The notes beneath the pieces were generated by a model. The model worked only from the letters and a program-made list of their open reading frames with translations. It was not told where the DNA came from and made no database searches. Positions 26,374 to 52,027 of a stretch of 64,000 nt of DNA are shown one piece after another. Both the position numbers and the translations under genes were made by a program. Each line of letters opens with the position of its first letter. Position 1 is the first letter of the stretch. This DNA is from Nicotiana tabacum (Eukaryota; Streptophyta; Magnoliopsida; Solanales; Solanaceae): the NCBI RefSeq assembly GCF_000715075.1, contig NC_134089.1:72026697-72090696 (forward strand), read 5' to 3'.

Positions 26374-26385
26374 CTATATATATAG
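26374..26385 (-). promoter_or_regulatory. LTR1 TATA box candidate
   Basis: CTATATATATAG, palindromic enough to read the same on the minus strand, lies about 2.4 kb from the U3 start and is kept in all three LTRs. If used, transcription would start around 26340-26350 on the minus strand, giving a U3 of about 2.4 kb. No other good candidate was seen. Confidence 0.5.
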
Positions 26386-28174: not shown

Positions 28175-28758
28175 ATGGGAGGGGGTTGGGCGGATGGTTT
28201 AATTATGGGGCGGACCGGGTCGACCCGATTTAGAATGGACCGGGTCATGGGGAAGATTGGGCAATTATTTGGGCCTGAGGTTGAAATTTGAAGAAGTGGC
28301 CCAATCCGATTTTTCTTTGTATTTTGTTCTCTTTTCTTCTTTTATTTTCTAAAACTAAATTATAAAAATACTTAAATAATTATTAAGAACTAAATTAAGT
28401 TATAAAAGCGCAAATTAACTCCCAATAACAATTAACGCACAATTAAGTAATAATTAAGCATAAAATTGTTATTTTGGACATTAAATGCTAAAAAATGCAA
28501 AAGATGCCTATTTTTTGTAATTTTTGATTTTTGTAAAACTAATTTAATTACTAACAATTGTAGAATTAAATCCTACATGCAAAATGCGACATATTTTTGT
28601 ATTTTTTATTAATTTAACAAATAAGCAAACACAGACAAATACAAATAATTATCCAAAAATATCACAAAATCTCACAAAATTGCACACCAAGGAAAATCAT
28701 TTGATTTTGAATTTTTTTGGGAGTAATTCTCATATAGGGCAAAAATCACGTGCTTACA

Positions 28759-28771: not shown

Positions 28772-28891
28772 GCCCGAAGACACGAAGGGTTTTCGTGCAA
28801 AGATAAAGCGAGCGATTTTTGCCCATCCGAGTACTCCGTGTGAAGCATTTTTTTGAAAAAGATTTAACCGAACCTTTGCTTCAAAGGTTTC

Positions 28892-28933
28892 CTACATATC
28901 CCTGGCTAAAGGGGAATCAGGTTAATGTAGTTC
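28892..28933. other. Two-stem motif copy 1, interior A
   Basis: The outer stem is CTACAT/ATGTAG. The inner stem is TCCCT/AGGGGA with one bulged G and loop GGCTAA. The ATCAGG spacer and trailing TTC are shared with the other copies. The same copy is at 41580-41621 in interior B. Confidence 0.6.
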
Positions 28934-29490
28934 GGGAAATTTTGGTAGCTGGGACTACCGTGGGACATGCAATGTTACTGCTGCTGCATGCTGTTATCAC
29001 TGCTTACCGATCTCCTTGTTACACCGTGCTTAAAAGAAAACAAGAAGCTAGGCTAGACTGAAATTTGTTCTTGTTGCCTTGCTTTCTTGTCGGCTTGTGT
29101 TTCATCCGGTGCTTTTCTTCCGTGAATTTGGGAATGATACTGGCCCTTTGCTTTTCTGAGTACCAGTTTTCATCATTTTGCTCGATCCGCTAGGGACATG
29201 GCTTTCTTCATCAAGCTTTTCGGCGGTTCCTCTGGTGGGTACGACTCTCTTCATCAGACTTGTTATGCTGGGCATGATTTAATGTTCACCAGCTGCTTCT
29301 TTCAAAACGCGTCCTTTCTTCCTTTTGACTCAGGCGCTTGAATTTGTGCTGGGACCTCTTGCTGCAACCTTTTGCTTCCCGGTGCTGGGGATTTTTATTG
29401 TTTCCTGCTGGGGATTCCTGTTGTAACCTTCTACCTTCCGGTGGGTTTACTGATTTCAAAATCTGTAGTATAAGACTCAAAAGTATTCCT

Positions 29491-30640
29491 CTTGTTATAT
29501 AGGTGCGTGCCTGAATGCAAAAACATGAAATGTATGCCCGCATTATACTGGTGGGCGACCTTAAACCGACCTAGAACATGAATGTATTCCCGCATTATAC
29601 TGGTGGGCGACCTAGAACATGAATGTATTCCCGCATTATACTGGTGGGCGACCTAGAACATGAATGTATTCCCGCATTATACTGGTGGGCGACCTAGAAC
29701 ATGAATGTATTCCCGCATTATACTGGTGGGCGACCTAGAACATGAATGTATTCCCGCATTATACTGGTGGGCGACCTAGAACATGAATGTATTCCCGCAT
29801 TATACTGGTGGGCGACCTAGAACATGAATGTATTCCCGCATTATACTGGTGGGCGACCTAGAACATGAATGTATTCCCGCATTATACTGGTGGGCGACCT
29901 AGAACATGAATGTATTCCCGCATTATACTGGTGGGCGACCTAGAACATGAATGTATTCCCGCATTATACTGGTGGGCGACCTAGAACATGAATGTATTCC
30001 CGCATTATACTGGTGGGCGACCTAGAACATGAATGTATTCCCGCATTATACTGGTGGGCGACCTAGAACATGAATGTATTCCCGCATTATACTGGTGGGC
30101 GACCTAGAACATGAATGTATTCCCGCATTATACTGGTGGGCGACCTAGAACATGAAATGAAAAGACAGAAATGTATTCCCGCATTATACTGGTGGGCGAC
30201 CTAGAACATGAAATGTATTCCCACATTATACTGGTGGGCGACCTAGAACAGAAATGTATTCCCGCATTATACTGGTGGGCGACCTAGAACAGAAATGTAT
30301 TCCCGCATTATACTGGTGGGCGACCTAGAACAGAAATGTAAAGACAGAAAGTATTCCTGCATTATACTGGTGGGCGACCTAGAACAGAAAAGTATTCCCG
30401 CATTATACTGGTGGGCGACCTAGAACAAAAAAGTATTCCCGCATTATACTGGTGGGCGACCTAGAACAAAATGTATTCCCGCATTATACTGGTGGGCGAC
30501 CTAGAACAAAATGTATTCCCGCATTATACTGGTGGGCGACCTAGAATAGAAAAGTATTCCCGCATTATACTGGTGGGCGACTTAGAACAGAAATGTAAAG
30601 ACAGAAAGTGTTCCTCTCGTTATACAGGTGGGTGCCTGTT
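29491..30640 (-). repeat. 41-bp tandem array, interior A (about 25 units)
   Basis: Each unit carries GTATTCCCGCATTATACTGG, then TGGGCGACCTAGAAC and a short variable linker. Fourteen consecutive 41-bp units at 29581-30154 look identical, while later units have linkers of 38-56 bp (AACAGAA, AACAAAA, or with AAAGACAGAAA). Diverged units flank it on both sides: TTCCTCTTGTTATATAGGTG near 29486 and TTCCTCTCGTTATACAGGTG near 30611. It is located in the 3' untranslated part of the element. Tandem arrays at this place are known for Tat/Ogre elements. Confidence 0.95.
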
Positions 30641-30660
30641 TTCAACCACAACTTTGAGAA

Positions 30661-31736
30661 TAAAATCCTATTTGAGGGCGGATGAACCCAACATATCCTA
30701 TTTGAGGGCGGATGAACCCCAAACTATCCTGTTGGAGGGCGGATGAACCCAAACTATCCTGTTGAGGGCGGATGAACCCAACATATCCTATTCGAGGGCG
30801 GATGAACCCAAAATATCCTGTTTGAGGGCGGATGAACCCAAAATATCCTGTTTGAGGGCGGATGAACCCGACATATCCTATTCGAGGGCGGATGAACCCG
30901 ACATATCCTATTCGAGGGCGGATGAACCCGACATATCCTATTCGAGGGTGGATGAACCCGACATATCCTATTCGAGGGCGGATGAACCCGACATATCCTA
31001 TTCGAGGGCGGATGAACCCGACATATCCTATTCGAGGGCGGATGAACCCGACATATCCTATTCGAGGGCGGATGAACCCGACATATCCTGTTCGAGGGCG
31101 GATGAACCCGACATATCCTATTTGAGGGCGGATGAACCCGATATATCCTTAAAACTTGAAAATGTCTTACCTCGAAAACTTGCTGGGAATTATTTTGCTG
31201 GGGATGAATTTTCCCGTTCTTCCTATTTGAGGGCGGATGAACCCAAACTATCCTGTTCGAGGGCGGATGAACCCAATCTATCCTGTTCGAGGGCGGATGA
31301 ACCCGACATATCCTATTCGAGGGCGGATGTACCCGACATATCCTATTCGAGGGAGGATGAACCCGACATATCCTATTCGAGGGCGGATGAACCCGACATA
31401 TCCTATTCGAGGGCGGATGAACCCAACATACCCTATTCGAGGGCGGATGAACCCGACATATCCTATTTGAGAGCGGATGAACCCAACCTATCCTGTTTGA
31501 GGGCGGATGAACCCAAAATATCATGTTCGAGGGCGGATGAACCCGACATATCCTATTCGAGGGAGGATGAACCCGACATATCCTATTCGAGGGCGGATGA
31601 ACCCGACATACCCTATTCGAGGGCGGATGAACCCGACATATCCTATTCGAGGGCGGATGTACCCGACATATCCTATTCAAGGGCGGATGAACCCGACATA
31701 TCCTATTCGAGGGCGGATGAACCCGACATATCCTCA
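30661..31736 (-). repeat. 30-bp tandem array, interior A (about 33 units, two blocks)
   Basis: The unit is TTCGAGGGCGGATGAACCCG plus ACATATCCTA, 30 bp. Because 30 is divisible by three, several frames stay open on both strands with a ten-residue period (minus ICRVHPPSNR, plus RADEPDISYS). The array is split at 31141-31225 by a copy of the sequence that also follows the array (31732-31805), so an array-plus-flank block was duplicated. Unit variants at a few positions are mixed throughout. Confidence 0.95.
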
Positions 31737-33736
31737 AAATTTGAAAATGTCTTATCTTAAAACTTGCTGGGGATTATTTTGCTGGGGGATGAATTTTCCC
31801 TTTTCTTCCTTCCCCATTATGGGTTGTCCGACCCTCTTGAAACTTGGTCGAAAGTCTGTCGAAGATGCTTCTACATCTCGATGACCCGCTGGGGATAACG
31901 CTGCTGAAGGTAACTCTGCTGAGTAAATATGTTATCTAACTCCTTCCAGAACTACTTCCTTTTGGGTGAGATGTTTCATTCCTCTGCAAACTACTTCCCT
32001 CTTTCTTTTTTCCCTTTTTTTTTGTTTTTTTAGCTTCGTCCTTCGAAGACTACCTCCCTTAAGACTCGTTTTGCCTTAACCTAAAAGGAACCGCTGAGGA
32101 TACCGATTTTCACCAAACTTGTGTTGGACTCCTCAAAACTGCTGGTGGATTATTTACTTACCTGTTGGGGGATAAAATGTTATCAGCTGCGGATAACGTT
32201 GTCGAGGACAACACTGCTGGGGGATTTTGATTCCTTCAAAACTAGTGTTTCACTCTTCTGAAGGCTGTTGGGAATGATGCTGGCCTCTCGCTCTTTCTGA
32301 GCTCAAGTTTCATCCCTTCGCTGGGGAACAACTTCCTCCATTGAAACTTATTATGTTGGGGGCAACACTGGTTCAAAGACAACTTCCCTTGAGACTTGTG
32401 TTATCTTTGTTTTTCCCCAAATGGGTACCTGATTTCCAGAAAATTTTCTAAAATGAAAGGAAAATTTTCTGCCCCAGTTTGATAATCTTTCTTGTGGCAT
32501 GCATTTCTGTCATCAATGCCATTTTCTTTACCTGTTTCAAATCAAATAAAATTTGTTAGTTTAAAATGCGGTGGTTGGTTGTGATACTCCTACTGGGATG
32601 GTTTTCCCTTTCTCCTTCCTTGCTCTGCGCTCCAGAAACTGGTTGGTTGCGATATTATTTGCTGGGGATAATCCCATTCTGCTGGGGATATCCCTCTTCT
32701 TTTGTGGCATAGACGAAAACTGGCATTTCCCCGATCTTTTTTAGTATCATATGGATTTCCCAAACCATGCTCACTGCTCTCCTTGCTTTGTCCACGGGCC
32801 TTGGCCTTGAGGTTTATAACCTTTGATTTTGGCAAGGATATCCCTCTTGACATTCGTCAATCCTTTTGTCAATTCCCTTTTGCTGGGGATATCTTTTTTT
32901 GACACTGGCCTCGCGCTTGTTCCTTGTTGACTATACCATTTGGATGTACTAGTCAGATCTCATCTTGCCTGATTGGAAAGCTGATGGCCTATTTTGAAGT
33001 CATTTCCCACTGGTTCTGACCAAACAGACTCTTTTGGGGAATTTTTCTATGAAAGGAAAAAGATAAAAGGGAACAGAATAAAAAGGCAAAGGAAAAAGAT
33101 GACTCTTTAACAAAAGAAACTATAAATAAAAACCTATCAAATGCAGATACCGACTCTAATGGTCATGACATGCATATGTGGCCTATCCTCCGCCATCAAT
33201 CATCTTTCAAGACCTTCAATTGGCGATTCCCCATCTGATTTCCAATCTTATTCGACTTGTAGTGCCCGAAGGGTTTTCACTATCAAGTCTCTCTCATTTT
33301 GGTTTTTCTCTCAGCTTTCGTCGCCTTATGGTGCCTGTGAAGGTTTTCACCGATAAGACTCTCTCATTTGTATCACTTTCCAGCTGGGGATTTGGAGTGT
33401 CGCCGGTATGACTCTTTCTGCTGGGGATTAGAGTCCTTTCTGCTGTGGAACAGAATGTTATGTTCACGGGTAAGACTCTTCATTTGTCTGACTTGGCATC
33501 TTTTGAAGACTGATCAGAAGGTCTTTCTTTGGACCGTAATGTGGGTTTTTGGATAAGGATAGAAAGAAAGGGTATTAAAGGCTCAAAACGCATCGATTTT
33601 GGGTTATTAATTACAACCTTCGGAACTAGATTTATTTACAACAAGCGCAACCTTTGCCCCAGTTTCTTGCTTGGGGATATCTTGATTGATTGATTTTTTT
33701 TTCATTTTTCAAAACTATGACCGAGCCGTGAAGCGC

Positions 33737-33775
33737 CTACGTATCCTTTTTGAGGAATCAGGTCAAACGTAGTTC
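33737..33775. other. Two-stem motif copy 2, interior A
   Basis: The outer stem is CTACGT/ACGTAG. The inner stem is TCCT/AGGA with loop TTTTG. The spacer ATCAGGTCAA is shared. The counterpart in B is 46441-46479. Confidence 0.6.
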
Positions 33776-35066
33776 CCAATTCCTTTTTTTTTCATTTGAC
33801 TTTCCTTTGTTTTTTTTTGTTATCATTTTCCTTCTCTTTACTCTTTTTTTCTTTTTTTTTCTTTACCTGCTATGCTTGCGTTTTCTATTCGTTTCTACTG
33901 ATTCCGAACGAGGGGTATGAAAGAAAACAAATAAGGCTCAAAGGGGTAACAAAGGATAAAATGTTTAGGTAGCAGAACAAAATGCCTTCGTCATTCCAGT
34001 CTTCAAAACATGCCAAGTGCAAACAACACATTTGAACATAGATTTATAGTCTCTTCCGATGGTGCTGGACTTGACAATTATATTCACATTTGCTTTTTCA
34101 TTTGTTAATTCTAAAACACCGTTGGGCGACACTCTCATTATCATGAATGACCCTCATGCCAATTTGGCGAATCTTGCTTTTAAACGGTTTTATTTTTGTT
34201 TTACTTGCCCTAGTTCCACATGACTCGGGCTCCAAATAATCTCAAACCGTTATTATTTCCTTTAAATGCTTTGATCACCTTCCCAGGGTTTTATGATCAA
34301 CTTTTAAGATTAGGCCCAAACTGTAAGCGCATGTCATGTCACTAGAATCGGCATTGAACAAAAATGAAAAAATGACTAAACAAAAAGATGACTGGAAATA
34401 ACAAAAGACCTGCTTTTGTATTAGACTACCGGCGAAATGGTTTGAATAATAAAACAAACAAAACAACCAGAATAAAATCCTAACACATCCTCGACAAAAC
34501 TTAAACAAACTGATATGACAAAATGGAAAGATAGGAAGGTTTGACACAAGACAATATTCGGATTACAACCCTAAGAATAATCCGGACAACAGAAATGACA
34601 ACAAAATAAGCCACCACCAGCTTCTCTTTTGCTAACCAAGGAACGGAGCGTCCTCCCATTTTATCAAACTTGGCATCTTAGCCACTGAGCTTCGCATCAG
34701 TATTGCCTAGACCATTACCAACTTCAATATCATCAACCTTAGTCAACAAGTCCCCAATAAGATTCGAGTGCTTCTGTTATCAGGCCTGATCCTAGCAGAG
34801 TATGTATCATGAGGTGCAAGTAAAGGATTCTGGGTGTCATTGTCTGGCTTACCACAAACCAACCACCTTAACTTTCTTTGCAAAACAAACAAGTTAGAAT
34901 GGACAAAGTCGGTCCTCATTATTAACAACATCTTTCTTTTCTTTTTTTTTTCTTTCTTTTTTTTTCGATTTTTTTTTCTTTTTCTCGATTTTTCCATTTT
35001 TTCGTTTTTTTCCATTTTTTTCATTCTTTTCCTTTTTTTTCCGTGGTCGAATCTTATGGAGATTGC

Positions 35067-35108
35067 CTACGTATCATGACCCCGCATGAATCAGACCTTG
35101 CGTAGTTC
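35067..35108. other. Two-stem motif copy 3, interior A
   Basis: The outer stem is CTACGT/GCGTAG, with a terminal T-G pair. The inner stem is TCATG/CATGA with loop ACCCCG. The spacer is ATCAGACC. The counterpart in B is 47775-47816, where the outer 5' arm reads CAACGT and is weakened. Confidence 0.6.
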
Positions 35109-35562
35109 GGACCCAATAAAAGATAAGTAATAAACACATTTTTTTTCTGGAATTTACAATTTTCAAATTCAAACAAACTGGATTGCAAAAGTTTAAAAAC
35201 TAACCATACTAACAGACTTTGACAAAAGACAACAAACGACCTCGAAAATCAAATAACTCGCATCAAAGAATTACAAACTCAAAACAGACGGTCAGTTCCT
35301 TTCCCCGTTTGCCAAATGCAACCAAACTGTTATTTTTTGCAAATGTCGGGGAGGATTATTTTATGACACTTTACAAACTTGTCCATTCTTTTACGAAAAT
35401 AACCTTTTGACAATTGAAAGATACTCTAAGGCTATTTCGGCAAGAACGGTTTAAAACGCGGCCGAAGCTGGCTCGGCTTATTTTGACTAAAAACCCAAAC
35501 GGTATACACCTGACCGCTGACTTTTTTTTTTTTCAAATTACAAAAAAACTGGTGTTGCAAAC

Positions 35563-35950
35563 ACGACCCTTCAGCGCCTCGGGGGCAAAGATTTTAAGGC
35601 TGTGTGGGTCAACTGGACAAAAATACTAAACAAGACCCAAAGGTGGCTGTTTATGCAAAGTCAGCCCTCCGGCGTCCCTTTCGGGAACATTCGGCTAAGT
35701 TATGACAAAACAGCATCACCTGACTTATTTACGACCCTTTTTATCATTTTTCGAATTAGAAAAGTCAATATTGCAAACCCGGCCTTTCAACGTCTCGGGG
35801 ACGAGGATTTTTAAGGCTGTGTGGGTCAACTGGACCAAATCTTAAAAATGACCCGAAGGTGGCTGTTTATGCAAAGTCAGCCTTCCGGCGTCCCTTTCGG
35901 GAACATTCGGCTATTTATGACAAAACAACATCACCTGACTTATTTATGAC
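35563..35950. repeat. About 210-bp tandem duplication, interior A
   Basis: 35563-35745 and 35774-35950 share long blocks, including AAGGCTGTGTGGGTCAACTG, GGTGGCTGTTTATGCAAAG and GGCGTCCCTTTCGGGAAC. The two copies are moderately diverged. The same pair exists in interior B (48265-48450 and 48484-48660), so the duplication predates the unit duplication. Confidence 0.85.
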
Positions 35951-36029
35951 AGAGTTGAAATTTTGACATGTTTTTTTTTGTTTTTTGGCTATTTTAGCAA
36001 AAGGTGGGGTTGGACCCGATGAGGGTTGC

Positions 36030-36071
36030 CTACGTATCTCACACCCGGTGAGAATTAAACCCGCGTAGTTC
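36030..36071. other. Two-stem motif copy 4, interior A
   Basis: The outer stem is CTACGT/GCGTAG. The inner stem TCTCAC/GTGAGA is perfect, with loop ACCCG. The counterpart in B is 48740-48781, where the loop changes but the stem is kept. Confidence 0.6.
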
Positions 36072-36575
36072 GGGTAATCATGAATAAAGTAAATAAACTA
36101 ACCCTTTTCTTTTTATTATTATTATTTTTTTTCTTTGGAATCTGTGAAAGAACTGCTTTAAAAGAAGAAAGGAAGTATATTTTTTTTTTGGATTTTTGAT
36201 TGATTTTCTTTTTTGAAAGAAAGATTTCTAAGAATTCCTTTTCTTTTGATTTGAACTTTGAGAATTTCAAAAGTAAAGGAAGATATTTTTTTGTTTGAAT
36301 TTTCATTTGTTTTCTCTTAATCTAAAGAAGAAAGAAGATATTTTTGGAATTTTACCTTTAATAAAAGAAATGCTTCTAAAAAATAAAAATATTTTTTTGA
36401 ATTTTGAATTTTCTTTTCAATTTTGAAAGAAGAATCAAAATATTTTCTTTTATATTTGTTGCAAGACATATATTTTTGGAATTTTACTTTGAATTTTCTT
36501 GGCAAGACAAATACTCTTTGCAACAAATAAAGATATATATGTATATCTTGGAAATAAAGAAAAATTACTTTTTGG

Positions 36576-36579
<4 letters not shown>

Positions 36580-36617
<38 letters not shown>
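36580..36617. repeat. TA microsatellite, interior A
   Basis: About 19 TA units, at the same place as the roughly 200-bp TA tract in interior B. The frames of alternating Tyr and Ile across it are artefacts. Confidence 0.93.
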
Positions 36618-36619
<2 letters not shown>

Positions 36620-37542
36620 AATAATAAAACCAAGTTCAACGCACGACTCTTTTTATTTATTTTTGGCATTTTCAAATAAATAAATAAGAACCATTTTAAA
36701 ACAAACTTTTTTTCATTTTCATTTTCATTTTCATGGCAAAACAAACTATTTTCCTTTTCTATTTTTTTTTTTTGAAAAACAAGACATAACAACGACTTTT
36801 TTTTCTTTGTTTTTAATAAAACTAACTAATAAGACATTTTTTTTCATTTTTTCAAAATTTCGGCAGAGTTTTGACAGTATTTCTGTATTGGTTTTTTTCA
36901 AAAATAAACAATCAATTCCCTAACCGCTATCTTTTTTTTTCTTTTTTCCTCAATTTCACAATATTCCTGATATTCAAAAATCTGTCAACACACAAGTCCG
37001 AATCGAATAAATGCGCAAGTAGCAGCAAATAAGATGCATTAGGATGGTCATTTTCATTTTTGGGTACACCTGTCCTAGACAGACCCAACCCTGCGTTGAG
37101 CCTCCAAAGTCAGATGCACATGATGCAGATAAGCGTTCCTACTAGGGATCCGACATGTGGCTTTGTTATACTAGGTTCAGAACCTGGGTGTTTGTTCTAG
37201 ACCTGGCTTACCCGAGCGGACAGCTCGAGCCGAGGGGGAGGCGGCAGTCCGGGAATACAGAAGCTTCACCGGCTTTGCGACTTATCCAAACCTCGTTCTA
37301 AATTGGGACTTGACACTATACAGAAAAGAAGTCGTACGAAGTACACCCTTCTTCATGATTAAGAAGACTCAGAGAGAAGATGAGTTTCGGCACAGTTTAT
37401 ATACAGTTCACGTAATATCAAAGCGGTAAAAGGCAACCAATTAGCACATTGAGCCAAAACATGTAACAAAATCAGATAAAACCAAATATAACAATTTATA
37501 TAAGCTCGAATTTCTAACCTTGAACCAGTGGTTCTAGATTTG

Positions 37543-37560
37543 TCCCCAGCAGAGTCGCCA
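37543..37560 (-). other. Primer-binding site next to LTR2, tRNA-Arg type
   Basis: The minus strand reads TGGCGACTCTGCTGGGGA, four bases (GCTC) after the LTR2 end. The match to the tRNA-Arg 3' end is typical of Tat/Ogre elements; I assign it from knowledge of the lineage, not from an alignment. Confidence 0.75.
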
Positions 37561-39066
37561 GAGCTGTCACACCTCCTTTTTCCGCCCCCGCGAGGGGCGT
37601 AAGAGTTTTTTCCAATTAAAGGACAATCAAAACGGGATTGGTTTATTTATTTCAGAGTCACCACTTGGGAGATTTAGGGTGTCCCAAGTCACCAATTTTA
37701 ATCCCGAGTCGAGGAAAAGAATGACTCCATATTACAGTCTGCGTACCAGAAATCCGGATAAGGAATTCTGTTAACCCGGGAGAAGGTGTTAGGCATTCTC
37801 GAGTTCCGTAGTTCTAGCACGGTCGCTCAACTGTCATATTCGGCTTATTTATCTGATTTTTATACAATTATGAACCGGTATGCCAATTTTAACTTTTTAC
37901 CACTTTATTATTATTATTTTTAAAAGAATGTGAACATCGCTTAAAACATGTCATTGGATTGCGTCACATGAAATGCACCCAAATCCGGAACACATTTTAT
38001 TTGATATTTTGGGATTTGGATTTGGGTCGCATGAAATGCACACCCAAGCTTTAAGAAAGTAAACTATTAAACACGCGCCTAAAGAGACTATCGCGTTATT
38101 ATTTTGGGAAGGCCGTGAAATTCACTAAATGGTCCTACCACATCTAATTAAACCATACATTTTGTGAGGGCCCCGCAATCTATACGTTTTATTTGGCGAG
38201 GCTCGTCTCGTTTTTATTTAAAAGGATGAACCTATAGTGACTACATTTTCTATTAGGTTCGTCTCTAAAATAAAAGAAATCCCTCAATTAATTACATGCT
38301 AAAAAAAGACGTAACTTATTAGTTATTAGTTTACGGCTAATGCAAATGGAAAATTGCAATCGAGTTTGTACCAAGAAAGATTGCTTTTATTCAATATTCT
38401 ACCATTTACTAATACTAGAACATGAGATAGATACACAGTAATATCAAAACAGATTAACTATTCTTCGATTTACTTAAACTAACATTATTAGATGAAGAAA
38501 TTATACATATGCAACCTCATTACTCATTAATCATTCAACTACATCTTTATACAAAGAAAGGAAAATTATATTCAAACACAAGTCTAAACAGGAGGAATTC
38601 AACAGGAACAAAGCCTGATTAATATTTCATTTCGCTTCAAGCCGAGAGTGTACAAATGTGTACCTGGAAATAGCAGTACAAGAACAAAAGAAGGAGAAGT
38701 CAGCAGCAGTAATAACACAGCAACAGCAGGTTCAGCAACACCGCAAACCAGTAACAACCAGTAACAACCAGTAGAATAACCCAGCAACGGATTGAAAAAT
38801 CAGCAATACCAAAGTGCAATTGCAGTCAAAGCAGAAGAGAGACGGATACCGAATGCAGTAGTTTACTGATTTTCAATAACACTCGAGAAAAGGCAAACAG
38901 AAATTATTCAAGTGAAAGTTCAAGTTGTCTTTCTCTTTTAAAAAGACTCCAACACTTCTTCAGATTTTCAGAATGTATTACTCTAAAAAATATTCTCCCC
39001 CCAAAATCTCTCTAGAAAAATAATCCTCCTAATAATCTTCAACCCCTTTAATGTGTCAAAATGACT

Positions 39067-39078
39067 CTATATATATAG
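39067..39078 (-). promoter_or_regulatory. LTR2 TATA box candidate
   Basis: CTATATATATAG, same context as in LTR1 and LTR3. If active it would drive unit A on the minus strand. Confidence 0.45.
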
Positions 39079-40079
39079 CAAGACAAGTCTTGAATTCCCA
39101 ACCCCAAATTATTCCCCCAAGTCATGCTTTGTCCCCACTATTAAATGTCTTCTTTATTTTAAACCTTGTCCCCCATGCCTACATTAAATAAATACACAAT
39201 CCCAACCCATTATAATTTGTCCCCCATGCTTAACATAAACAAATGCAATATTCCCTCCCATTATATTTTGTCTTGTCCCCCATTATGTTAAATAATTATA
39301 TCAAAAATCCCACCCCATTATATTTTGTCTCCCATGCTTAACATAAAGAATCAAAATAATGTTCAATTACCAAACTACCCCTCCGACCTTATTGCAATTA
39401 CCATTTTACCCCTGAACGGATTGCAATTTACCAAACTACCCCCATCAGCTCTAAACAATCAATTAATCAAAACTTGACCAAAATATAGTCAAGATGACCA
39501 ATTTCTCAACAATCTTCAACAACAAATCACATGAACACGATGAACAACACAACTCAAAATTAATGGAACGAATCAACCATATCGGGAACCAATCCTGGTT
39601 AATTTAGACCATGAATGTATGAGCAAAGATACAACAATACAAACAACAAAACTATATGATTCAAATTAAATCAACAAATCAAAAACAAACATAAACTCAC
39701 ATTAAATCACTGGATTTAAATATGAACTTCAAACAAAGATGAGCATGAACTAAATCTATTTTTTAAGCAACAAAACAAGACGGATTCACATGACTCAAAC
39801 AACATTAATAATTTCTGGAAAATACATAACAACATGAAACAAACTGAATTAAATTCAATTTGAATCTAACAAACTAACAAATATTTATCTAAACAATAAT
39901 ACAAACATGAAAAACAACTAATTAAACTTTCATTTGAAATCTGAAAAATTAATTTAACAAAGCACAAAAACAAACTAAAAATTAATTCAAACGATAGACA
40001 TGAACAAAACAAACATTTGCCGATTTTAGATTTAAAAATATCAAAACAAAAATACGGACAAAATAAAACTCAAAAACTA

Positions 40080-40682
40080 CTAACCGGATCGAAATGAAAT
40101 ATGTACGGACTGTTTCGACGAGCCTCGACCAAAGCTCAACCAAACGACGACGAACATGAACCTAAGAAGTTGACACCGAAACAACAACAACAATCGACGC
40201 GACAGAAGCGATGCTCGAGCAACACTTTTGAGCTTCTGACCAACGGTTTTATAGAGCAAATGAAGAAGCTTCGACCGTGGATCTTTTGCTCCTTCGGGAA
40301 ATGATTGTTGGATCGTAGTTTCATCGACGAAGAAGATGAAGCAGAAACATAGCGTGACGGGTCTGTTTGGAGATGAAGTGAAGCAGCAGGATGGTTTGAA
40401 GCCGAAGGAGATGAAGTGAAGCAGTAGGACGGCTGGGTGTATCGGAAGCAGCCATGGCGGAAAGCTTAACGAAGGAGTGGCGACCATGGATGTCGAGCTC
40501 AAGCTTGAGCTCGACGAAGAAGACGAAGCATCTGGTTGCTGCTGGTCGTTTGGACGTGAGAACGCAACAAGAAGCAGTACGTGAAGCTGGGGGTCGACGC
40601 AGCAGCACTGCTGCTCGTCAATGGCGGACATGGAGGGGCGCTGTTCGTTTAATGAAGATGAAGGAGAAGAAGCAGCAGCCAT
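40080..40682 (-). other. U3 open frame, 200 codons in LTR2 (doubtful)
   Basis: Counterpart of the LTR1 frame without its early stop, extending to a tail rich in Ser, Leu and Arg. It has a Ser-rich middle and Cys/Leu patches but no recognised domain. Conservation among LTR copies is expected from shared descent alone. Confidence 0.25.
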
Positions 40683-41446
40683 GGACGGGCTGCTGCGTGT
40701 GTGCGTGTGTGTTTTGTTGTGTATGTGTATGTGTGTGTGTGTGTGTTGTTGATGGGGAGGTAGCCATGGTTGGGTTGGGATGAAGGTTTTGCAGAGGAAG
40801 AAGATGGAGGGGGCGGGTAGTTTTTTTTTTAGTTTTAGGGTTTCAACAAGAAAAATGACAAATGGGAGGGGGTTGGGCGGATGGTTTAATTATGGGGAGG
40901 ACCGGGTCGACCCGATTTAGAATGGACCGGGTCATGGGGAAGATTGGGCAATTATTTGGGCCTGAGGTTGAAATTTGAAGAAGTGGCCCAATCCGATTTT
41001 TCTTTGTATTTTGTTCTCTTTTCTTCTTTTATTTTCTAAAACTAAATTATAAAAATACTTAAATTATTATTAAGAACTAAATTAAGTTATAAAAGCGCAA
41101 ATTAACTCCCAATAACAATTAACGCACAATTACGTAATAATTAAGCATAAAATTGTTCATTTGGACATTAAATGCTAAAAAATGCAAAAGATGCCTATTT
41201 TTTGTAATTTTTGATTTTTCTAAAACTAATTTAATTACTAACAATTGTAGAATTAAATCCTACATGCAAAATGCGACATATTTTTGTATTTTTTATTAAT
41301 TTAACAAATAAGCAAACATAGACAAATACAAATAATTATCCAAAAATATCATAAAATCTCACAAAATTGCACACCAAGGAAAATCATTTGATTTTAAATT
41401 TTTTTTGGGAGTAATTCTCATATAGGGCAAAAATCACGTGCTTACA

Positions 41447-41459
41447 GCTGCCCCTCTTT
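41447..41459 (-). other. Polypurine tract next to LTR2
   Basis: The minus strand reads AAAGAGGGGCAGC before TGTAAGCACGTG. It shows that LTR2 has a complete 3'-LTR context for unit B. Confidence 0.75.
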
Positions 41460-41579
41460 GCCCGAAGACACGAAGGGTTTTCGTGCAAAGATAAAGCGAG
41501 CGATTTTTGCCCATCCGAGTACTCCGTGTGAAGCATTTTTTTGAAAAAGATTTAACCGAACCTTTGCTTCAAAGGTTTC

Positions 41580-41621
41580 CTACATATCCCTGGCTAAAGG
41601 GGAATCAGGTTAATGTAGTTC
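41580..41621. other. Two-stem motif copy 1, interior B
   Basis: Same stems as 28892-28933, unchanged: outer CTACAT/ATGTAG, inner TCCCT/AGGGGA. Confidence 0.6.
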
Positions 41622-42189
41622 GGGAAATTTTGGTAGCTGGGACTACCGTGGGACATGCAATGTTACTGCTGCTGCATGCTGTTATCACTGCTTACCGATC
41701 TCCTTGTTACACCGTGCTTAAAAGAAAACAAGAAGCTAGGCTAGACTGAAATTTGTTCTTGTTGCCTTGCTTTCTTGTCGGCTTGTGTTTCATCCGGTGC
41801 TTTTCTTCCGTGAATTTGGGAATGATACTGGCCCTTTGCTTTTCTGAGTACCAGTTTTCATCATTTTGCTCGATCCGCTAGGGACATGGCTTTCTTCATC
41901 AAGCTTTTCGGCGGTTCCTCTGGTGGGTACGACTCTCTTCATCAGATTTGTTATGCTGGGCATGATTTAATGTTCACCAGCTGCTTCTTTCAAAACGCGT
42001 CCCTTCTTCCTTTTGACTCAGGCGCTTGAATTTGTGCTGGGACCTCTTGCTGCAACCTTTTGCTTCCCGGTGCTGGGGATTTTTATTGTTTCCTGCTGGG
42101 GATTCCTGTTGTAACCTTCTACCTTCCGGTGGGGTTACTGATTTCAAAATCTGTTGTATAAGACTCAAAAGTATTCCTTTTGTTATATA

Positions 42190-43322
42190 GGTGCACGCCT
42201 GAATGCAAAAACATGAAATGTATGCCCGCATTATACTGGTGGGCGACCTAAAACAGAAATGAAAAGACAGAAATGTATTCCCGCATTATACTGGTGGGCG
42301 ACCTAGAACATGAAATGTAAAGACAGAAATATATTCCCGCATTATACTGGTGGGCGACCTAGAACATGAATGTATTCCCGCATTATACTGGTGGGCGACC
42401 TAGAACACAATGTATTCCCGCATTATACTGGTGGGCGACCTAGAACAGAATGTATTCCCGCATTATACTGGTGGGCGACCTAGAACAGAATGTATTCCCG
42501 CATTATACTGGTGGGCGACCTAGAACAAAAATGTATTCCCGCATTATACTGGTGGGCGAACTGGTGGGTGATATAGAACATGAAATGTAAAGACAGAAAT
42601 ATATTCCCGCATTATACTGGTGGGCGACCTAGAACATGAATGTATTCCCGCATTATACTGGTGGGCGACCTAGAACAGAATGTATTCCCGCATTATACTG
42701 GTGGGCGACCTAGAACAGAATGTATTCCCGCATTATACTGGTGGGCGACCTAGAACAGAAAGTATTCCCGCATTATACTGGTGGGCGACCTAGAACAGAA
42801 TGTATTCCTGCATTATACTGGTGGGCGACCTAGAACATGAAATGAAAAGACAGAAATGTATTCCCGCATTATACTGGTGGGCGACCTAGAACATGAAATG
42901 TATTCCCACATTATACTGGTGGGCGACCTAGAACAGAAATGTATTCCCGCATTATACTGGTGGGCGACCTAGAACAGAAATGTATTCCCGCATTATACTG
43001 GTGGGCGACCTAGAACAGAAATGTAAAGACAGAAAGTATTCCTGCATTATACTGGTGGGCGACCTAGAACAGAAAAGTATTCCCGCATTATACTGGTGGG
43101 CGACCTAGAACAAAAAAGTATTCCCGCATTATACTGGTGGGCGACCTAGAACAAAATGTATTCCCGCATTATACTGGTGGGCGACCTAGAACAAAATGTA
43201 TTCCCGCATTATACTGGTGGGCGACCTAGAATAGAAAAGTATTCCCGCATTATACTGGTGGGCGACTTAGAACAGAAATGTAAAGACAGATAGTGTTCCT
43301 CTAGTTATACAGGTGGGTGCCT
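42190..43322 (-). repeat. 41-bp-class tandem array, interior B (about 24 units)
   Basis: Same core as the array at 29491-30640, but with unit lengths of about 39-60 bp and linkers dominated by AACAGAA. One unit (42541-42600) is a hybrid with an internal duplication of CTGGTGGG. The distal part, from 42835 on, matches interior A closely, whereas the proximal part differs completely in unit order. Confidence 0.95.
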
Positions 43323-43339
43323 GTTTTCAACCACAACTT

Positions 43340-44436
43340 TGAGAATAAAATCCTATTTGAGGGCGGATGAACCCAACATATCCTATTTGAGGGCGGATGA
43401 ACCCCAAACTATCCTGTTGGAGGGCGGATGAACCCAAACTATCCTGTTGAGGGCGGATGAACCCAACATATCCTATTCGAGGGCGGATGAACCCAAAATA
43501 TCCTGTTTGAGGGCGGATAAACCCGACATATCCTGTTTGAGGGCGGATGAACCCGACATATCCTACTTGAGGGCGGATGAACCCGACATATCCTGTTGGA
43601 GGGCGGATGAACCCGACATATCCTATTCGAGGGCGGATGAACCCGACATATCCTGTTCGAGGGCGGATGAACCCGACATATCCTGTTCGAGGGCGGATGA
43701 ACCCGACATATCCTGTTCGAGGGCGGATGAACCCGACATATCCTGTTCGAGGGCGGATGAACCCGACATATCCTATTTCGAGGGCGGATGAACCCGACAT
43801 ATCCTATTCGAGGGCGGATGAATCCGACATATCCTATTCGAGGGCGGATGAACCCGACATATCCTATTCGAGGGCGGATGAACCCGACATATCCTATTCG
43901 AGGGCGGATGAACCCGACACATATCCTATTCGAGGGCGGATGAACCCGACATATCCTATTCGAGGGCGGATGAACCCGACATATCCTATTCGAGGGCGGA
44001 TGAACCCGACATATCCTATTTGAGGGCGGATGAACCCGACATATCCTGTTTGAGGGCGGATGAACCCGACATATCCTGTTTGAGGGCGGATGAACCCAAC
44101 ATATCCTATTCGAGGGCGGATGAACCCGACATATCCTATTCGAGGGCGGATGAACCCAACATACCCTATTCGAGGGCGGATGAACCCGACATATCCTATT
44201 TGAGGGCGGATAAACCCAACCTATCCTGTTTGAGGGCGGATGAACCCAAAATATCCTGTTCGAGGGTGGATGAACCCGACATATCCTATTCGAGGGAGGA
44301 TGAACTCGACATATCCTATTCGAGGGCGGATGAACCCGACATATCCTATTCGAGGGCGGATGAACCCGACATATCCTATTCGAGGGCAGATGAACCCGAC
44401 ATATCCTATTCGAGGGCGGATGAACCCGACATATCC
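43340..44436 (-). repeat. 30-bp tandem array, interior B (about 36 units)
   Basis: Same 30-bp unit as interior A but without the interrupting block. A one-base insertion (CCTATTTCGAGG near 43772) and a two-base insertion (GACACATATCC near 43919) shift the frame inside the array. The long minus-strand frame therefore changes from ICRVHPPSNR to GYVGFIRPRI repeats and back. This argues against protein coding. Confidence 0.95.
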
Positions 44437-46440
44437 TCAAAATTTGAAAATGTCTTACCTCAAAACTTGGTGGGGATTATTTTGCTGGGGGATGAATTTT
44501 CCCTTTTCTTCCTTCCCCAATATGGGTTGTCCGAACCTCTTGAAACTTGGTCGAAAGTCTGTCGAAGATGCTTCTACATCTCGATGACCCGCTGGGGATA
44601 ACGCTGCTGAAGGTAACTCTGCTGAGTAAATATGTTATCTTACTCCTTCCAGAACTATTTCCTTTTGGGTGAGATGTTTCATTCCTCTGCAAACTACTTC
44701 CCTCTTTCTTTTTTCCCTTTTTTTTTTGTTTTTTTTAGCTTCGTCCTTCGAAGACTACCTCCCTTAAGACTCGTTTTGCCTTAACCTGAAAGGAACCGCT
44801 GAGGATACCGATTTTCACCAAACTTGTGTTGGACTCCTCAAAACTGCTGGTGGATTATTTACTTACCTGTTGGGGGATAAAATGTTATCAGCTGCGGATA
44901 ACGTTGTCGAGGACAACACTGCTGGGGGATTTTGATTCCTTCAAAACTAGTGTTTCACTCTTCTGAAGGCTGTTGGGAATGATGCTGGCCTCTCGCTCAT
45001 TCTGAGCTCAAGTTTCATCCCTTCGCTGGGGAACAACTTCCTCCATTGAAACTTATTATGTTGGGGGCAACACTGGTTCAAAGACCACTTCCCTTGAGAC
45101 TTGTGTTATCTTTGTTTTTCTCCAAATGGGTACCTGATTTCCAGAAAATTTTCTAAAATGAAAGGAAAATTTTCTGCCCAAGTTTGATAATCTTTCTTGT
45201 GGCATGCATTTCTGTCATCAATGCCATTTCCTTTACCTGTTTCAAATCAAACAAAATTTGTTAGTTTAAAACGCGGTGGTTGGTTGTGATACTCCTACTG
45301 GGATGGTTTTCCCTTTCTCCTTCCTTGCTCTGCGCTCCAGAAACTGGTTGGTTGCGATATTATTTGCTGGGGATAATCCCATTCTGCTGGGGATATCCCT
45401 CTTCTTTTGTGGCATAGACGGAAACTGGCATTTCCCCGATCTTTTTTAGTATCGTATGGATTTCCCAAACCATGCTCACTGCTCTCCTTGCTTTGTCCAC
45501 GAGCCTCGGCCTTGAGGTTTATAACCTTTGATTTTGGCAAGGATATCCCTCTTGACATTCGTCAATCCTTTTGTCAATTCCCTTTTGCTGGGGATATCTT
45601 TTTTTGACACTGGCCTCGCGCTTGTTCCTTGCTGACTATACCATTTGGATGTACTGGTCAGATCTCATATTGCCTGATTGGAAAGATGATGGCCTATTTT
45701 GAAGTCATTTCCCACTGGTTCTGACCAAACAGACTCTATTGGGGAATTTTTCTATGAAAAGAAAAAGATAAAAGGGAACAGAATAAAAAGGCAAAGGAAA
45801 AAGATGACTCTTTAACAAAAGAAACTATAAATAAAAACCTATCAAATGCAGATACCGACTCTAATGGTCATGACATGCATATGTGGCCTATCATCCGCCG
45901 TCAATCATCTTTCAAGACCTTCAATTGGCGATTCCCCATCTGATTTCCAATATTATTTGACTTGTAGTGCCCGAAGGGTTTTTACTATCAAGTCTCTCTC
46001 ATTTTGTTTTTTCTCTCAGCTTTCGTCGCCTTATGGTGCCTGTGAAGGTTTTCACCGATAAGACTCTCTCATTTGTATCACTTTCCAGCTGGGGATTTGG
46101 AGTGTCGCCGGTTTGACTCTTTCTGCTGGGGATTAGAGTCCTTTCTGCTGTGGAACAGAATGTTATGTTCACGGGTAAGACTCTCCATTTGTCTGACTTG
46201 GCATCTTTTGAAGACTGATCAGAAGGTCTTTCTTTGGACCGTAATGTGGGTTTTTGGATAGCGATAGAAAGAAAGGGTAAAGGCTCAAAACGCATCGATT
46301 TTGGGTTATTAATTACAACCTTCGGAACTAGATTTATTTACAACAAGCGCAACCTTTGCCCCAGTTTCTTGCTTGGGGATATCTTGATTGATTGATTTTT
46401 TTTTTTCATTTTTCAAAACTATGACCGAGCCGTAAAGCGC

Positions 46441-46479
46441 CTACGTATCCTCTTTGAGGAATCAGGTCAAACGTAGTTC
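46441..46479. other. Two-stem motif copy 2, interior B
   Basis: The outer stem is CTACGT/ACGTAG and the inner stem TCCT/AGGA. The loop is CTTTG instead of TTTTG in A, so the A-B difference falls in the loop. Confidence 0.6.
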
Positions 46480-47774
46480 CCAATTCCTTTTTTTTTTCAT
46501 TTGACTTTCCTTTGTTTTTTTTTGTTATCATTTTCCTTCTCTTTACTCTTTTTTTTCTTTTTTTTCTTTACCTGCTATGCTTACGTTTTCTATTCGTTTC
46601 TACTGATTCCGAACGAGGGGTATGAAAGAAAACAAATAAGGCTCAAAGGGGTAACGAAGGATAAAGTGTTTAGGTAGCAGAACAAAATGCCTTCGTCATT
46701 CCAGTCTTCAAAACATGCCAAGTGCAAACAACACATTTGAACATATATTTATGGTCTCTTCCGATGGTGTTGGACTTGACAATTATATTCACATTTGCTT
46801 TTTCATTTGTCAATTCTAAAACACCGTTGGGCGACACTCTCATTATCATGAATGACCCTCATGCCAATTTGGCGAATCTTGCTTTTAAACGGTTTTATTT
46901 TTGTTTTACTTGCCCTAGTTCCACATGACTCGGGCTCCAAATAATCTCAAACCGTTATTATTTCCTTTAAATGCTTTGATCACCTTCCCAGGGTTTTATG
47001 ATCAACTTTTAAGATTAGGCCCAAACTGTAAGCGCATGTCATGTCACTAGAATCGGCATTGAACAAAAATGAAAAAATGACTAAACAAAAAGATGACTGG
47101 AAATAATAAAAGACCTGCTTTTGTATTAGACTACCGGCGAAATGGTTTGAATAATAAAACAAACAAAACAACCAGAATAAAATCCTAACACAGCCTCGAC
47201 AAAACTTAAACAAACTGATATGACAAAATGGAAAGATAGGAAGGTTTGACACAAGACAATATTCGGATTACAACCCTAAGAATAATCCGGACAACAGAAA
47301 TGACAACAAAATAAGCCACCACCAGCTTCTCTTTTGCTAACCAAGGAACGGAGCGTCCTCCATTTTATCAAACTTGACATCTTAGCCACTGAGCTTCGCA
47401 TCAGTATTGCCTAGACCATTACCAACTTCAATATCATCAACCTTAGTCAACATGTCCCCAATAGGATTCGAGTGCTTCTGTTATCAGGCCTGATCCTAGT
47501 AGAGTGTGTATCATGAGGTGCAAGTAAAGGATTCTGGGTGTCATTGTCTGGCTTACCACAAACCAACCACCTTAACTTTCTTTGCAAAACAAACAAGTTA
47601 GAATGGACTAAGTCGGTCCTCATTATTAACAACATCTTTATTTTCTTTTTTTTTCTTTCTTTCTTTTTTTTTCGATTTTTTTTTCTTTTTCTCGATTTTT
47701 CCATTTTTTCGTTTTTTTCCATTTTTTTCATTCTTTTCCTTTTTTTTTCCGTGGTCGAATCTTATGGAGATTGC

Positions 47775-47816
47775 CAACGTATCATGACCCCGCATGAATC
47801 AGACCTTGCGTAGTTC
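47775..47816. other. Two-stem motif copy 3, interior B
   Basis: The inner stem TCATG/CATGA is intact. The outer 5' arm CAACGT has lost one pair relative to copy A. Confidence 0.55.
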
Positions 47817-48264
47817 GGACCCAATAAAAGATAAGTAATAAACACATTTTTTTTCTAGAATTTACAATTTTCAAATTAAAACAAACTGGATTGCAAAAGT
47901 TTAAAAACTAACCATACTAACAGACTTTGACAAAAGACAACAAACGGCCTCGAAAATCAAATAACTCGCATCAAAGAATTACAAACTCAAAACAGACGGT
48001 CAGTTCCTTTCCCCGTTTGCCAAATGCAACCAAACTGTTATTTTTTGCAAATGTCGGGGAGGATTATTTTATGACACTTTACAAACTTGTCCATTCTTTT
48101 ACGAAAATAACCTTTTGACAATTGAAAGATACTCTAAGGTTATTTCGGCAAGAACGGTTTAAAACGCGGCCGAAGCTGGCTTGGCTTATTTTGACTAAAA
48201 ACCCAAACGGTATACACCTGACCGCTGACTCTTTTTTTTTTCAAATTACAAAAAAAACTGGTGT

Positions 48265-48660
48265 TGCAAACACGGCCCTTCAGCGCCTCGGGGGCAAAGA
48301 TTTTAAGGCTGTGTGGGTCAACTGGACAAAAATACTAAACAAGACCCAAAGGTGGCTGTTTATGCAAAGCCAGCCCTCCGGCGTCCCTTTCGGGAACATT
48401 CGGCTAAGTTATGACAAAACAGCATCACCTGACTTATTTACGACCCTTTTTATCATTTTTCGAATTAGAAAAGTCAATATTGCAAACCCGGCCTTTCAAC
48501 GTCTCGGGGACGAGGATTTTTAAGGATGTGTGGGTCAACTGGACCAAATCTTAAAAATGACCCGAAGGTGGCTGTTTATGCAAAGTCAGCCTTCCGGCGT
48601 CCCTTTCGGGAACATTCGGCTATTTATGACAAAACAACATCACCTGACTTATTTATGACA
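48265..48660. repeat. About 210-bp tandem duplication, interior B
   Basis: Counterpart of 35563-35950, with both halves present (48265-48450 and 48484-48660). Confidence 0.85.
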
Positions 48661-48739
48661 GAGTTGAAATTTTGACATGTTTTTTTTTGTTTTTTTGGCT
48701 ATTTTAGCAAAAGTTGGGGTTGGACCCGATGAGGGTTGC

Positions 48740-48781
48740 CTACGTATCTCACATCCGGTGAGAATCAAACCCGCGTAGTTC
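48740..48781. other. Two-stem motif copy 4, interior B
   Basis: The inner stem is TCTCAC/GTGAGA with loop ATCCG, a loop-only change from A. The outer stem is CTACGT/GCGTAG. Confidence 0.6.
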
Positions 48782-49325: not shown

Positions 49326-49537
<212 letters not shown>

Positions 49538-50478: not shown

Positions 50479-50640
50479 GAGCTGTCACACCTCCTTTTTC
50501 CGCCCCCGCGAGGGGCGTAGGAGTTTTTTCCAATTAAAGGACAATCGAAACGGGATTGGTTTATTTATTTCAGAGTCACCACTTGGGAAATTTAGGGTGT
50601 CCCAAGTCACCAATTTTAATTCCGAGTCGAGGAAAAGAAT

Positions 50641-50720
50641 GACTCCATATTACAGTTTGCGTACCAGAAATCCGGATAATGACTCCATATTACAGTCTGC
50701 GTACCAGAAATCCGGATAAG
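50641..50720. repeat. 40-bp tandem duplication private to LTR3
   Basis: GACTCCATATTACAGTTTGC and its following 20 bases (50641-50680) recur at 50681-50720 with one C/T difference. LTR1 and LTR2 have a single copy. It is a useful diagnostic marker for LTR3. Confidence 0.93.
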
Positions 50721-52015: not shown

Positions 52016-52027
52016 CTATATATATAG
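52016..52027 (-). promoter_or_regulatory. LTR3 TATA box candidate
   Basis: CTATATATATAG, conserved with LTR1 and LTR2. As the 5' LTR, this copy would be the natural promoter for the whole insertion on the minus strand. Confidence 0.5.

What the first reader, a model, noticed from the sequence alone, without database searches (positions are those of the whole stretch)
28892..48781. Four dispersed copies per interior of a two-stem motif with covarying stems
At 28892, 33737, 35067 and 36030 (and 41580, 46441, 47775 and 48740) a roughly 40-nt sequence has the same plan. It has an outer stem CTACRT with its complement, an inner hairpin directly after CTACRTA, an AT(C/T)A-type spacer, then GTAGTTC. 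The inner stem differs in every copy yet stays paired: TCCCT/AGGGGA, TCCT/AGGA, TCATG/CATGA and TCTCAC/GTGAGA. The outer stem also shows a compensated G-C to A-T change. Differences between interiors A and B in copies 2 and 4 fall in loops. This is the signature of a selected nucleic-acid structure and is not explained by any element feature I know. It is my best candidate for something undescribed.
Basis: partly seen in the sequence, partly recalled or inferred. Interest (0 to 1): 0.8.

Follow-up and report, generated by a model that had tools for sequence, protein, structure and literature searches.

The report
Pseudoknotted RNA element in plant retrotransposons
A short RNA knot of about 60 to 70 bases sits in the untranslated gaps of a very abundant plant retrotransposon family, keeps its shape while its letters change, and also turned up once behind the gene of an unrelated DNA transposon, which suggests an RNA control element used by mobile elements of plants.

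Summary
All eight motifs are at the stated places; interiors A and B are 97% duplicates, so there are four independent slots. The functional strand is minus, the sense strand of an LTR retrotransposon. In 58 distinct aligned rows the pseudoknot pairs in 95.5% of cells, and all four of its base pairs change on both sides. Genome-wide, 77,264 exact motifs keep one P1 pair and 5,417 have it wobbled or broken (odds ratio 175). Coding relatives are Ogre/Tat type. They carry the motif before ORF1, between ORF1 and the gag position, after pol, and further 3'; the window's elements lack those genes but keep all four. One further copy lies 52 nt behind a hAT transposase gene of a maple-like plant; three hAT relatives (one subfamily) in the window's genome lack it. 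Rfam and ten paper searches gave no match. Function is inferred: most likely a post-transcriptional element that shields or routes transposon RNA.

The parts
24869..28758 (-). LTR copy 1 (3' LTR of interior A); begins TGTAAGCACGTG at 28758 after the polypurine tract AAAGAGGGGCAAC (28771-28759)
   Evidence: self-BLAST, boundary scan
37565..41446 (-). LTR copy 2 (5' LTR of interior A and 3' LTR of interior B); PBS-like TGGCGACTCTGCTGGGGAC starts at 37560
   Evidence: low end approximate to a few bases
50483..54395 (-). LTR copy 3 (5' LTR of interior B); PBS-like sequence starts at 50478
   Evidence: low end approximate to a few bases
36007..36071 (-). M4 of interior A: P1 CUACG/CGUAG, P3 UCUCAC/GUGAGA, P4 ACCC/GGGU, pseudoknot GGGUU/AACCC
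   Evidence: R1 E 5.9e-22 (this copy was in the model)
35045..35108 (-). M3 of interior A: P3 UCAUG/CAUGA, P4 AAUCU/AGAUU, pseudoknot GGUC/GACC
   Evidence: R1 E 1.5e-24 (in the model)
33718..33775 (-). M2 of interior A: P1 CUACGU/ACGUAG, P3 UCCU/AGGA, short P4, pseudoknot UGACC/GGUCA
   Evidence: R1 E 2.3e-16 (in the model)
28864..28933 (-). M1 of interior A: P1 CUACAU/AUGUAG, P4 AACCUUUG/CAAAGGUU, pseudoknot UUAACC/GGUUAA; about 90 nt upstream (sense) of the polypurine tract
   Evidence: R1 E 2.3e-19 (in the model)
48717..48781 (-). M4 of interior B
   Evidence: (E 6.9e-23; not in the model)
47753..47816 (-). M3 of interior B (one P1 mismatch)
   Evidence: (E 9.8e-22; not in the model)
46422..46479 (-). 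M2 of interior B
   Evidence: (E 1.3e-17; not in the model)
41552..41621 (-). M1 of interior B
   Evidence: (E 2.3e-19; not in the model, same sequence as M1 of A)

Best explanation
Each motif is a copy of a cis-acting RNA element in the sense transcript of an Ogre/Tat-type LTR retrotransposon. It folds into a compact nested pseudoknot: 5'-GAA-[P1 CUACRY]-[PK5]-UGAU-[P3 hairpin]-U-[P1' AYGUAG]-GC-[P4 hairpin]-Y-[PK3]-3'. Copies stand in the untranslated segments of the long transcript (before ORF1, between ORF1 and the gag position, after pol, further 3'), and the gene-less elements of the window keep all four. Structure and constraint are shown. That it acts on the RNA after transcription, not in reverse transcription, is inferred from orientation, slots and the one copy behind a hAT transposase. 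Committed mechanism (inferred): the rigid fold, directly or through a host protein bound to its invariant unpaired bases, protects long, multi-stop transposon RNA from decay (5'-3' exonuclease or nonsense-mediated decay), as triple-helix elements protect the 3' ends of other plant transposon RNAs. My estimates: structured RNA under selection 0.95; post-transcriptional cis element 0.8; decay protection in particular about 0.35. The confidence below is for the whole statement.
For: Covariation, pseudoknot included, on a MAFFT alignment of 32 of 58 copies that was not fitted to it: pseudoknot cells paired 96.1%, 4 of 4 pairs changed on both sides. On 60 model matches (58 distinct rows; 2 of the 60 sub-threshold but counted): pseudoknot 95.5%, whole structure 91.0% against 18-39% for slid partners and 0 of 500 shuffles. 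Exchanging pseudoknot strands among 29 unique combinations, with the same freedom of offset: 22 fully paired, shuffles mean 13.7, maximum 19 of 5000. Double changes within slots or types: AACC/GGTT or GACC/GGTC (M1), GACC/GGTC or GACT/AGTC (post-pol), GGTC/GACC or GATC/GGTC with one G.U (ORF1-gag), GGTT/AACC or GGTC/GACC (M4 type). Genome-wide P1 2x2: 53,497 + 23,767 paired, 2,945 + 2,472 not. In the M1 pseudoknot slot the G.U variant outnumbers the A.C variant 191 to 70, as expected for sense RNA. Unpaired GAA, UGAU, U, G kept in 56-58 of 58 rows. Core identity 0.84-0.93; all 60 flanking 50-nt bins lie below the core of their slot. 0 of 49 copies lie inside a sense ORF of 180 aa or more; 14 of 49 lie 127-278 nt after one. 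Carrier domains. The window interiors show no ORF1, gag-position, RT or INT match to the relatives' frames, while the control L070 matches all six. hAT copy: E 1.9e-10 with a model that did not contain it, Dimer_Tnp_hAT E 1.8e-21.
Against: No experiment, no transcript data. Nested single-sequence folding is unremarkable for three of four slots (z -0.02, 0.00, 0.30; M1 -2.46); the folder cannot model pseudoknots. The last P1 pair (column 12) fails in 31 of 56 rows and the first P4 pair in 22 of 58. 9 of 57 copies do not reach four pseudoknot pairs (two of them through the automatic P4 choice). Three hAT relatives of one subfamily in the same genome lack the motif in 331 nt around the stop (0 of 3). 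Only one copy outside this genome was found. The collecting pattern fixes many of the conserved letters, so their conservation is partly ascertainment, and the 20 regions were chosen around listed matches. Copies are related by descent, so the 2x2 counts are not independent events. M4 (leader) and M1 (far 3') do not closely follow a long ORF, which fits an NMD shield less well.
Confidence: 0.4

Rival explanations
1. Replication element of the retrotransposon: genome dimerisation, packaging or control of reverse transcription, present in several copies.
For: The window's elements keep all four motifs while lacking the genes; M1 lies about 90 nt from the polypurine tract.
Against: The same structure sits in sense 3' of a hAT DNA transposase gene, where there is no packaging or reverse transcription. 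Four dispersed slots are unusual for a packaging signal (recalled).
Confidence: 0.15
2. Nuclear export element for long intron-poor transposon RNA, like the constitutive transport elements of simple retroviruses.
For: Several copies per RNA, sense strand, untranslated placement, found in two transposon classes.
Against: No Rfam match at gathering score in the window; no functional data.
Confidence: 0.17
3. Translation element: internal entry or reinitiation upstream of ORF1 and gag.
For: One copy precedes ORF1 and one precedes the gag position.
Against: For the post-pol and M1 copies no ORF of 180 aa lies downstream in the loci examined (several loci end 0.1 to 1 kb after the copy), and the hAT copy lies after its transposase gene.
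Confidence: 0.12
4. Self-cleaving ribozyme of a new class with an HDV-like topology.
For: Size, pseudoknot and conserved unpaired bases fit the search criteria for self-cleaving RNAs given in PMC10085705 (section 17 read). The strand order P1-PK-hairpin-P1'-hairpin-PK' equals that of HDV ribozymes (recalled).
Against: The HDV features that I recall (active-site C in J4/2, L3/P1.1) are absent: J4/2 is one C or U and the P3 loop is variable. No Rfam ribozyme hit in the window. Cleavage at four places would cut the genomic RNA. In PMC10085705 ten other motifs chosen by such criteria did not cleave.
Confidence: 0.08
5. No function: the motif hitchhikes on amplified elements, or is a small insertion sequence.
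For: The copies whose context was examined in this genome ride on one highly amplified superfamily.
Against: Two-sided changes in all four pseudoknot pairs; odds ratio 175 for P1; kept in gene-less elements; the same slots in several families; one copy in a hAT from a Sapindaceae-like plant.
Confidence: 0.04

Closest known systems
[quoted passage not shown] Evade; rice hAT), known here only through passages of PMC12846552
   Same: A structured RNA element carried by different plant transposon classes (LTR and hAT); stabilises the transcript.
   Different: ENEs use U-rich loops that clamp the poly(A) tail (loops recalled). This motif has no U-rich loop, stands at four places including upstream of the genes, and has a pseudoknot with conserved GAA/UGAU.
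HDV-like self-cleaving ribozymes (recalled)
   Same: Same strand order: P1, P2(pseudoknot), P3 hairpin, P1', P4 hairpin, P2'.
   Different: No catalytic J4/2 or L3/P1.1 features; conserved UGAU linker instead; no Rfam match.
Viral exoribonuclease-resistant RNAs (recalled)
   Same: Compact pseudoknot in untranslated viral RNA that can stop decay.
   Different: Different strand order from those I recall; resistance untested; no Rfam match in the window.
Ogre/Tat LTR retrotransposons (PMC6317226, passages read)
   Same: The carriers: extra ORF with plant mobile domain before gag, second RNase H between RNase H and integrase.
   Different: The passages seen do not mention such an RNA; 'secondary structure', 'conserved motif' and 'untranslated' occur 0 times in that main text.

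Membership tests
Ogre/Tat LTR retrotransposon (carrier) | Second RNase H between RNase H and integrase | tested here: met
   L079 ORF: RVT_1, RT_RNaseH, RVT_3, Integrase_H2C2, rve in that order; defining feature from PMC6317226 passages. Shown for relatives; the window interiors have no such match.
Ogre/Tat LTR retrotransposon (carrier) | Plant mobile domain in an extra ORF upstream of gag (57% of Ogre) | tested here: met
   PMD E 6.4e-09 in L065 and 1.7e-18 in L083; the further ORF1 pieces L068 2-979 and L065 5105-6160 gave no family. Not in the window interiors.
Ogre/Tat LTR retrotransposon (carrier) | LTRs, PBS and polypurine tract in the window | tested here: met
   the PBS is PBS-like, its tRNA was not tested
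HDV-like ribozyme | Nested pseudoknot with strand order P1-P2-P3-P1'-P4-P2' | tested here: met
   (order compared with the recalled HDV fold; P1.1 not seen)
HDV-like ribozyme | Active-site C in J4/2 and conserved L3/P1.1 | tested here: not met
   J4/2 is one C or U; the P3 loop varies freely; Rfam 0 hits in the window. Features recalled.
HDV-like ribozyme | Self-cleavage | not testable with these tools
   needs in vitro transcription
Hammerhead ribozyme | CUGANGA ... GAAA core | tested here: not met
   conserved strand is UGAUUC, not CUGANGA; Rfam 0 hits in the window. Core recalled.
dENE/ENE | U-rich internal loops that bind poly(A) | tested here: not met
   no U-rich loop in the aligned copies; Rfam 0 hits in the window. 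Feature recalled.
xrRNA | Blocks 5'-3' exonuclease | not testable with these tools
   biochemical assay needed; Rfam 0 hits in the window
MITE/SINE insertion | Independent insertions at scattered sites | tested here: not met
   the same slots recur across element families; target-site duplications were not searched

The most novel reading that the evidence does not exclude
A previously undescribed family of pseudoknotted cis-acting RNAs, placed in every untranslated segment of Ogre/Tat retrotransposon RNA and shared with hAT DNA transposons across distant eudicots (Solanaceae and Sapindaceae, both inferred from nearest protein relatives): a class-independent RNA module by which plant transposons handle host RNA surveillance, present in more than 75,000 exact copies in one genome.
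Probability: 0.5. Interest if true: 0.88.

Novelty: new variant of a known kind. Interest (0 to 1): 0.78.

Why it matters
Large plant genomes are dominated by such elements, and how their long RNAs survive and are used is an open question. A ~60-70 nt fold repeated in the untranslated gaps, kept by gene-less relatives and found once with a DNA transposon, gives a defined, testable RNA module. If it stabilises or exports RNA it would also be a portable 3'UTR element and a handle for annotating transposon transcripts.

Tried and rejected
Rejected: cruciform/two-stem DNA motif (pseudoknot and G.U over A.C excess on the sense strand); known Rfam family (whole window at gathering score 0 hits; permissive search only of 28830-28960 and L001 7700-8000, best E 0.84 and 0.26; the other loci were not searched in Rfam); MITE or SINE (slots recur); HDV-like or hammerhead membership.

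Led nowhere: viral-contig scans. One search gave 31 matches, all judged chance: none has the GAACTAC start of the real copies, and they look like phage coding sequence (not annotated); searches gave 0. Plasmid search for the hAT flank: no match. Papers: searches listed no description of the motif; most subscription papers are not held. A primer in PMC11397162 shares 11 letters (passage seen). Passages of PMC9289625 were seen. Rows dropped before counting: 3 of 61 fuzzy hits judged chance; 2 of 60 model matches were sub-threshold (E 0.85 and 0.99) but stay in the counts and were left out. In one search one of 58 copies (L065 3736) yielded no P4 and was left out; for L066 9033 and L070 280 the automatic P4 choice hides the pairing. 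The script failed and was mended. The fourth cell of the pseudoknot 2x2 (TTAACC..GGTTAA) did not complete. My notes hold two slips corrected here: a stop-to-motif distance of 66 nt (52 by recount) and 50 copies (49).
Full report
Observation. All eight motifs lie at the stated places; no other convincing copy is in the window. The region is an array LTR - interior A - LTR - interior B - LTR, with LTRs at about 24869-28758, 37565-41446 and 50483-54395. A PBS-like TGGCGACTCTGCTGGGGAC starts at minus 37560 and 50478, and a polypurine tract stands directly before the LTR start TGTAAGCACGTG at 28758 and 41446. These place the sense strand on minus. A and B are 97-98% identical, so the eight motifs are four independent slots, here called M4, M3, M2 and M1 in sense order.

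Structure. Read on the minus strand, each copy is GAA - P1 - PK5 - UGAU - P3 - U - P1' - GC - P4 - Y - PK3. PK pairs in the four window slots are UUAACC/GGUUAA (M1), UGACC/GGUCA (M2), GGUC/GACC (M3) and GGGUU/AACCC (M4) (sequences; pairing of the inner four).

Broader set. I chose twenty 10-kb regions around some of the first 100 listed matches, all on one chromosome-scale contig of the same genome. With the window and L001 they gave 61 fuzzy hits, 58 judged real: 49 in those regions, 8 in the window, 1 in L001. MAFFT aligned 32 of the 58, picked for variety. Counting a named structure on that alignment: 90.5% of cells paired, 19-40% for slid partners, 0 of 500 shuffles as high; the pseudoknot is 96.1% paired with all four pairs changed on both sides. 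Two of the five measures do not exceed the shuffles there (pairs with a change on both sides 95 of 500; further pair types 386 of 500). A covariance model without the pseudoknot, run over 266 kb, returned 58 matches at E 1.9e-10 or better and then nothing until E 0.85. On the model's alignment the pseudoknot, which the model does not contain, is 95.5% paired. Exchanging pseudoknot strands between 29 unique combinations gives at most 19 full pairings in 5000 trials against 22 observed; of 57 copies, 48 reach four pairs. Each slot or type shows a double change of its own. Unpaired GAA, UGAU, the single U before P1' and the G after it are kept in 56-58 of 58 rows; part of this is ascertainment, because the collecting pattern fixes several of these letters.

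Genome-wide tests. The window lies at G000:C10:72026697-72090696 of a 3,996,098,646-base genome in 700 contigs; the tool does not name it. The integrase-bearing frame of L068 has its nearest named relatives in Nicotiana, Capsicum and Solanum, so a Solanaceae host is inferred. For one P1 pair the four exact-pattern counts are 53,497 (G-C), 23,767 (A-U), 2,945 (G.U in sense) and 2,472 (A.C in sense). The odds ratio is 175; independence would predict about 36,000 unmatched copies against 5,417 seen. For one pseudoknot pair in the M1 slot: 6,496 G-C, 191 with G.U, 70 with A.C; the fourth cell did not complete. The two single changes from G-C are the same transition in complementary local sequence, so 191 to 70 suggests that G.U is tolerated better, as in RNA; some of the 191 could instead derive from the uncounted A-U class. 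At P1 the excess is small (2,945 to 2,472). Copies descend from few masters, so these are not independent events.

Place in the carriers. Pfam was run on ten open frames of five loci: L068 and L079 show RT, RNase H and a second RNase H-like domain, with integrase in the same frame in L079 and in the next frame in L068; L076 shows integrase; ORF1 of L065 and L083 shows the plant mobile domain. The gag-position frame of L068 matched only a weak G-patch, so 'gag' is by position. Defining features are from passages of PMC6317226. Other loci are assigned by likeness of their frames. M4 stands before ORF1 (L065, L075, L078, L082), M3 or its GATC equivalent between ORF1 and the gag position (L065, L068, L070, L072, L075, L078, L082, L083), M2 or the GACT type after pol (L068, L070, L072, L074, L079, L083, L084; also L071, L076, L080), and M1 further 3' (L071, L074, L080, L084). 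None of the 49 copies lies inside a sense ORF of 180 aa or more; 14 of 49 follow such an ORF by 127-278 nt, 18 by 536-5482 nt, and 17 have none upstream in the locus. The window's interiors show no match (E 1e-3) to ORF1, gag-position, RT or INT frames of L065/L068, while L070 as a control matches all six; the only window matches, to RT and INT at 24-32% identity, lie at 21365-23738, outside the interiors. Core identity among copies of one slot is 0.84-0.93 (6 to 11 copies, window duplicates included); all 60 flanking 50-nt bins lie below the core of their slot, the highest at 0.91 against 0.93.

Outside this genome. One genome-contig scan gave one match, in a MAG contig from roe deer jejunum. 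The contig looks chimeric: bacterial-type frames up to about 7660, then a hAT element. The ORF upstream of the motif has Dimer_Tnp_hAT (E 1.8e-21). Its best match is an unnamed 97% protein; the best named one is from Dipteronia sinensis (73% over 85% of the query), with Acer also listed; Dipteronia is Sapindaceae, a rosid. The motif starts 52 nt after the stop codon, in sense (recounted). It was not in the model, yet scores E 1.9e-10, and its pseudoknot is GGCCUU/AAGGCC (sequence; inner four pairs).

Mechanism. What is shown: a structured RNA element under pair-keeping constraint, on the sense strand, in untranslated slots, kept without genes. What is inferred: the hAT copy argues against a function in packaging or reverse transcription and against internal ribosome entry, and favours handling of the mRNA itself; this rests on one copy. 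I commit to protection from decay (about 0.35) ahead of export (0.17), replication (0.15), translation (0.12), ribozyme (0.08) and no function (0.04). [quoted passage not shown] the present fold is different. Single-sequence folding gives little support, as expected if the pseudoknot carries much of the stability.

Novelty. No Rfam match (with the extents given under tried and rejected) and no paper found in ten searches. PMC10085705 (abstract, section 17 and passages read) describes other RNAs. Absence from print is claimed only for those searches.

Noticed in passing
window 24869-54395: LTR-interior-LTR-interior-LTR array: two interiors share the middle LTR, as after unequal recombination or tandem insertion.
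   Followed up: partly
window 29567-30597, 42202-43282 (about 41 bp) and 30665-31734, 43350-44437 (30 bp): Long tandem arrays between M2 and M1 in both interiors, with different arrangements in A and B.
   Followed up: no
G000 contigs, full list: The 70 variant M1 copies fall on 13 of the long contigs only (C1, C3, C5-C11, C16, C18, C20, C22), as if one parental subgenome of an allotetraploid carries this M1 subfamily.
   Followed up: no
L001/L034 (JAFUBK010000065.1), about 7660 onward: A contig of a published Bacilli MAG from roe deer gut looks chimeric and ends in a plant-like (Sapindaceae-like) hAT element.
   Followed up: partly
L066, L067, L074, L076, L081: Further element families with their own diverged motif types; for the PK strands TACC, GGCA and GGCC only 3 of 4 inner pairs form.
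   Followed up: partly
window 49328-49533: A pure AT dinucleotide run of about 103 units in interior B.
   Followed up: no
window 21365-23738, minus strand: Matches to RT and integrase of the Ogre-type relatives at 24-32% identity: another Ty3-type element beside the array.
   Followed up: no
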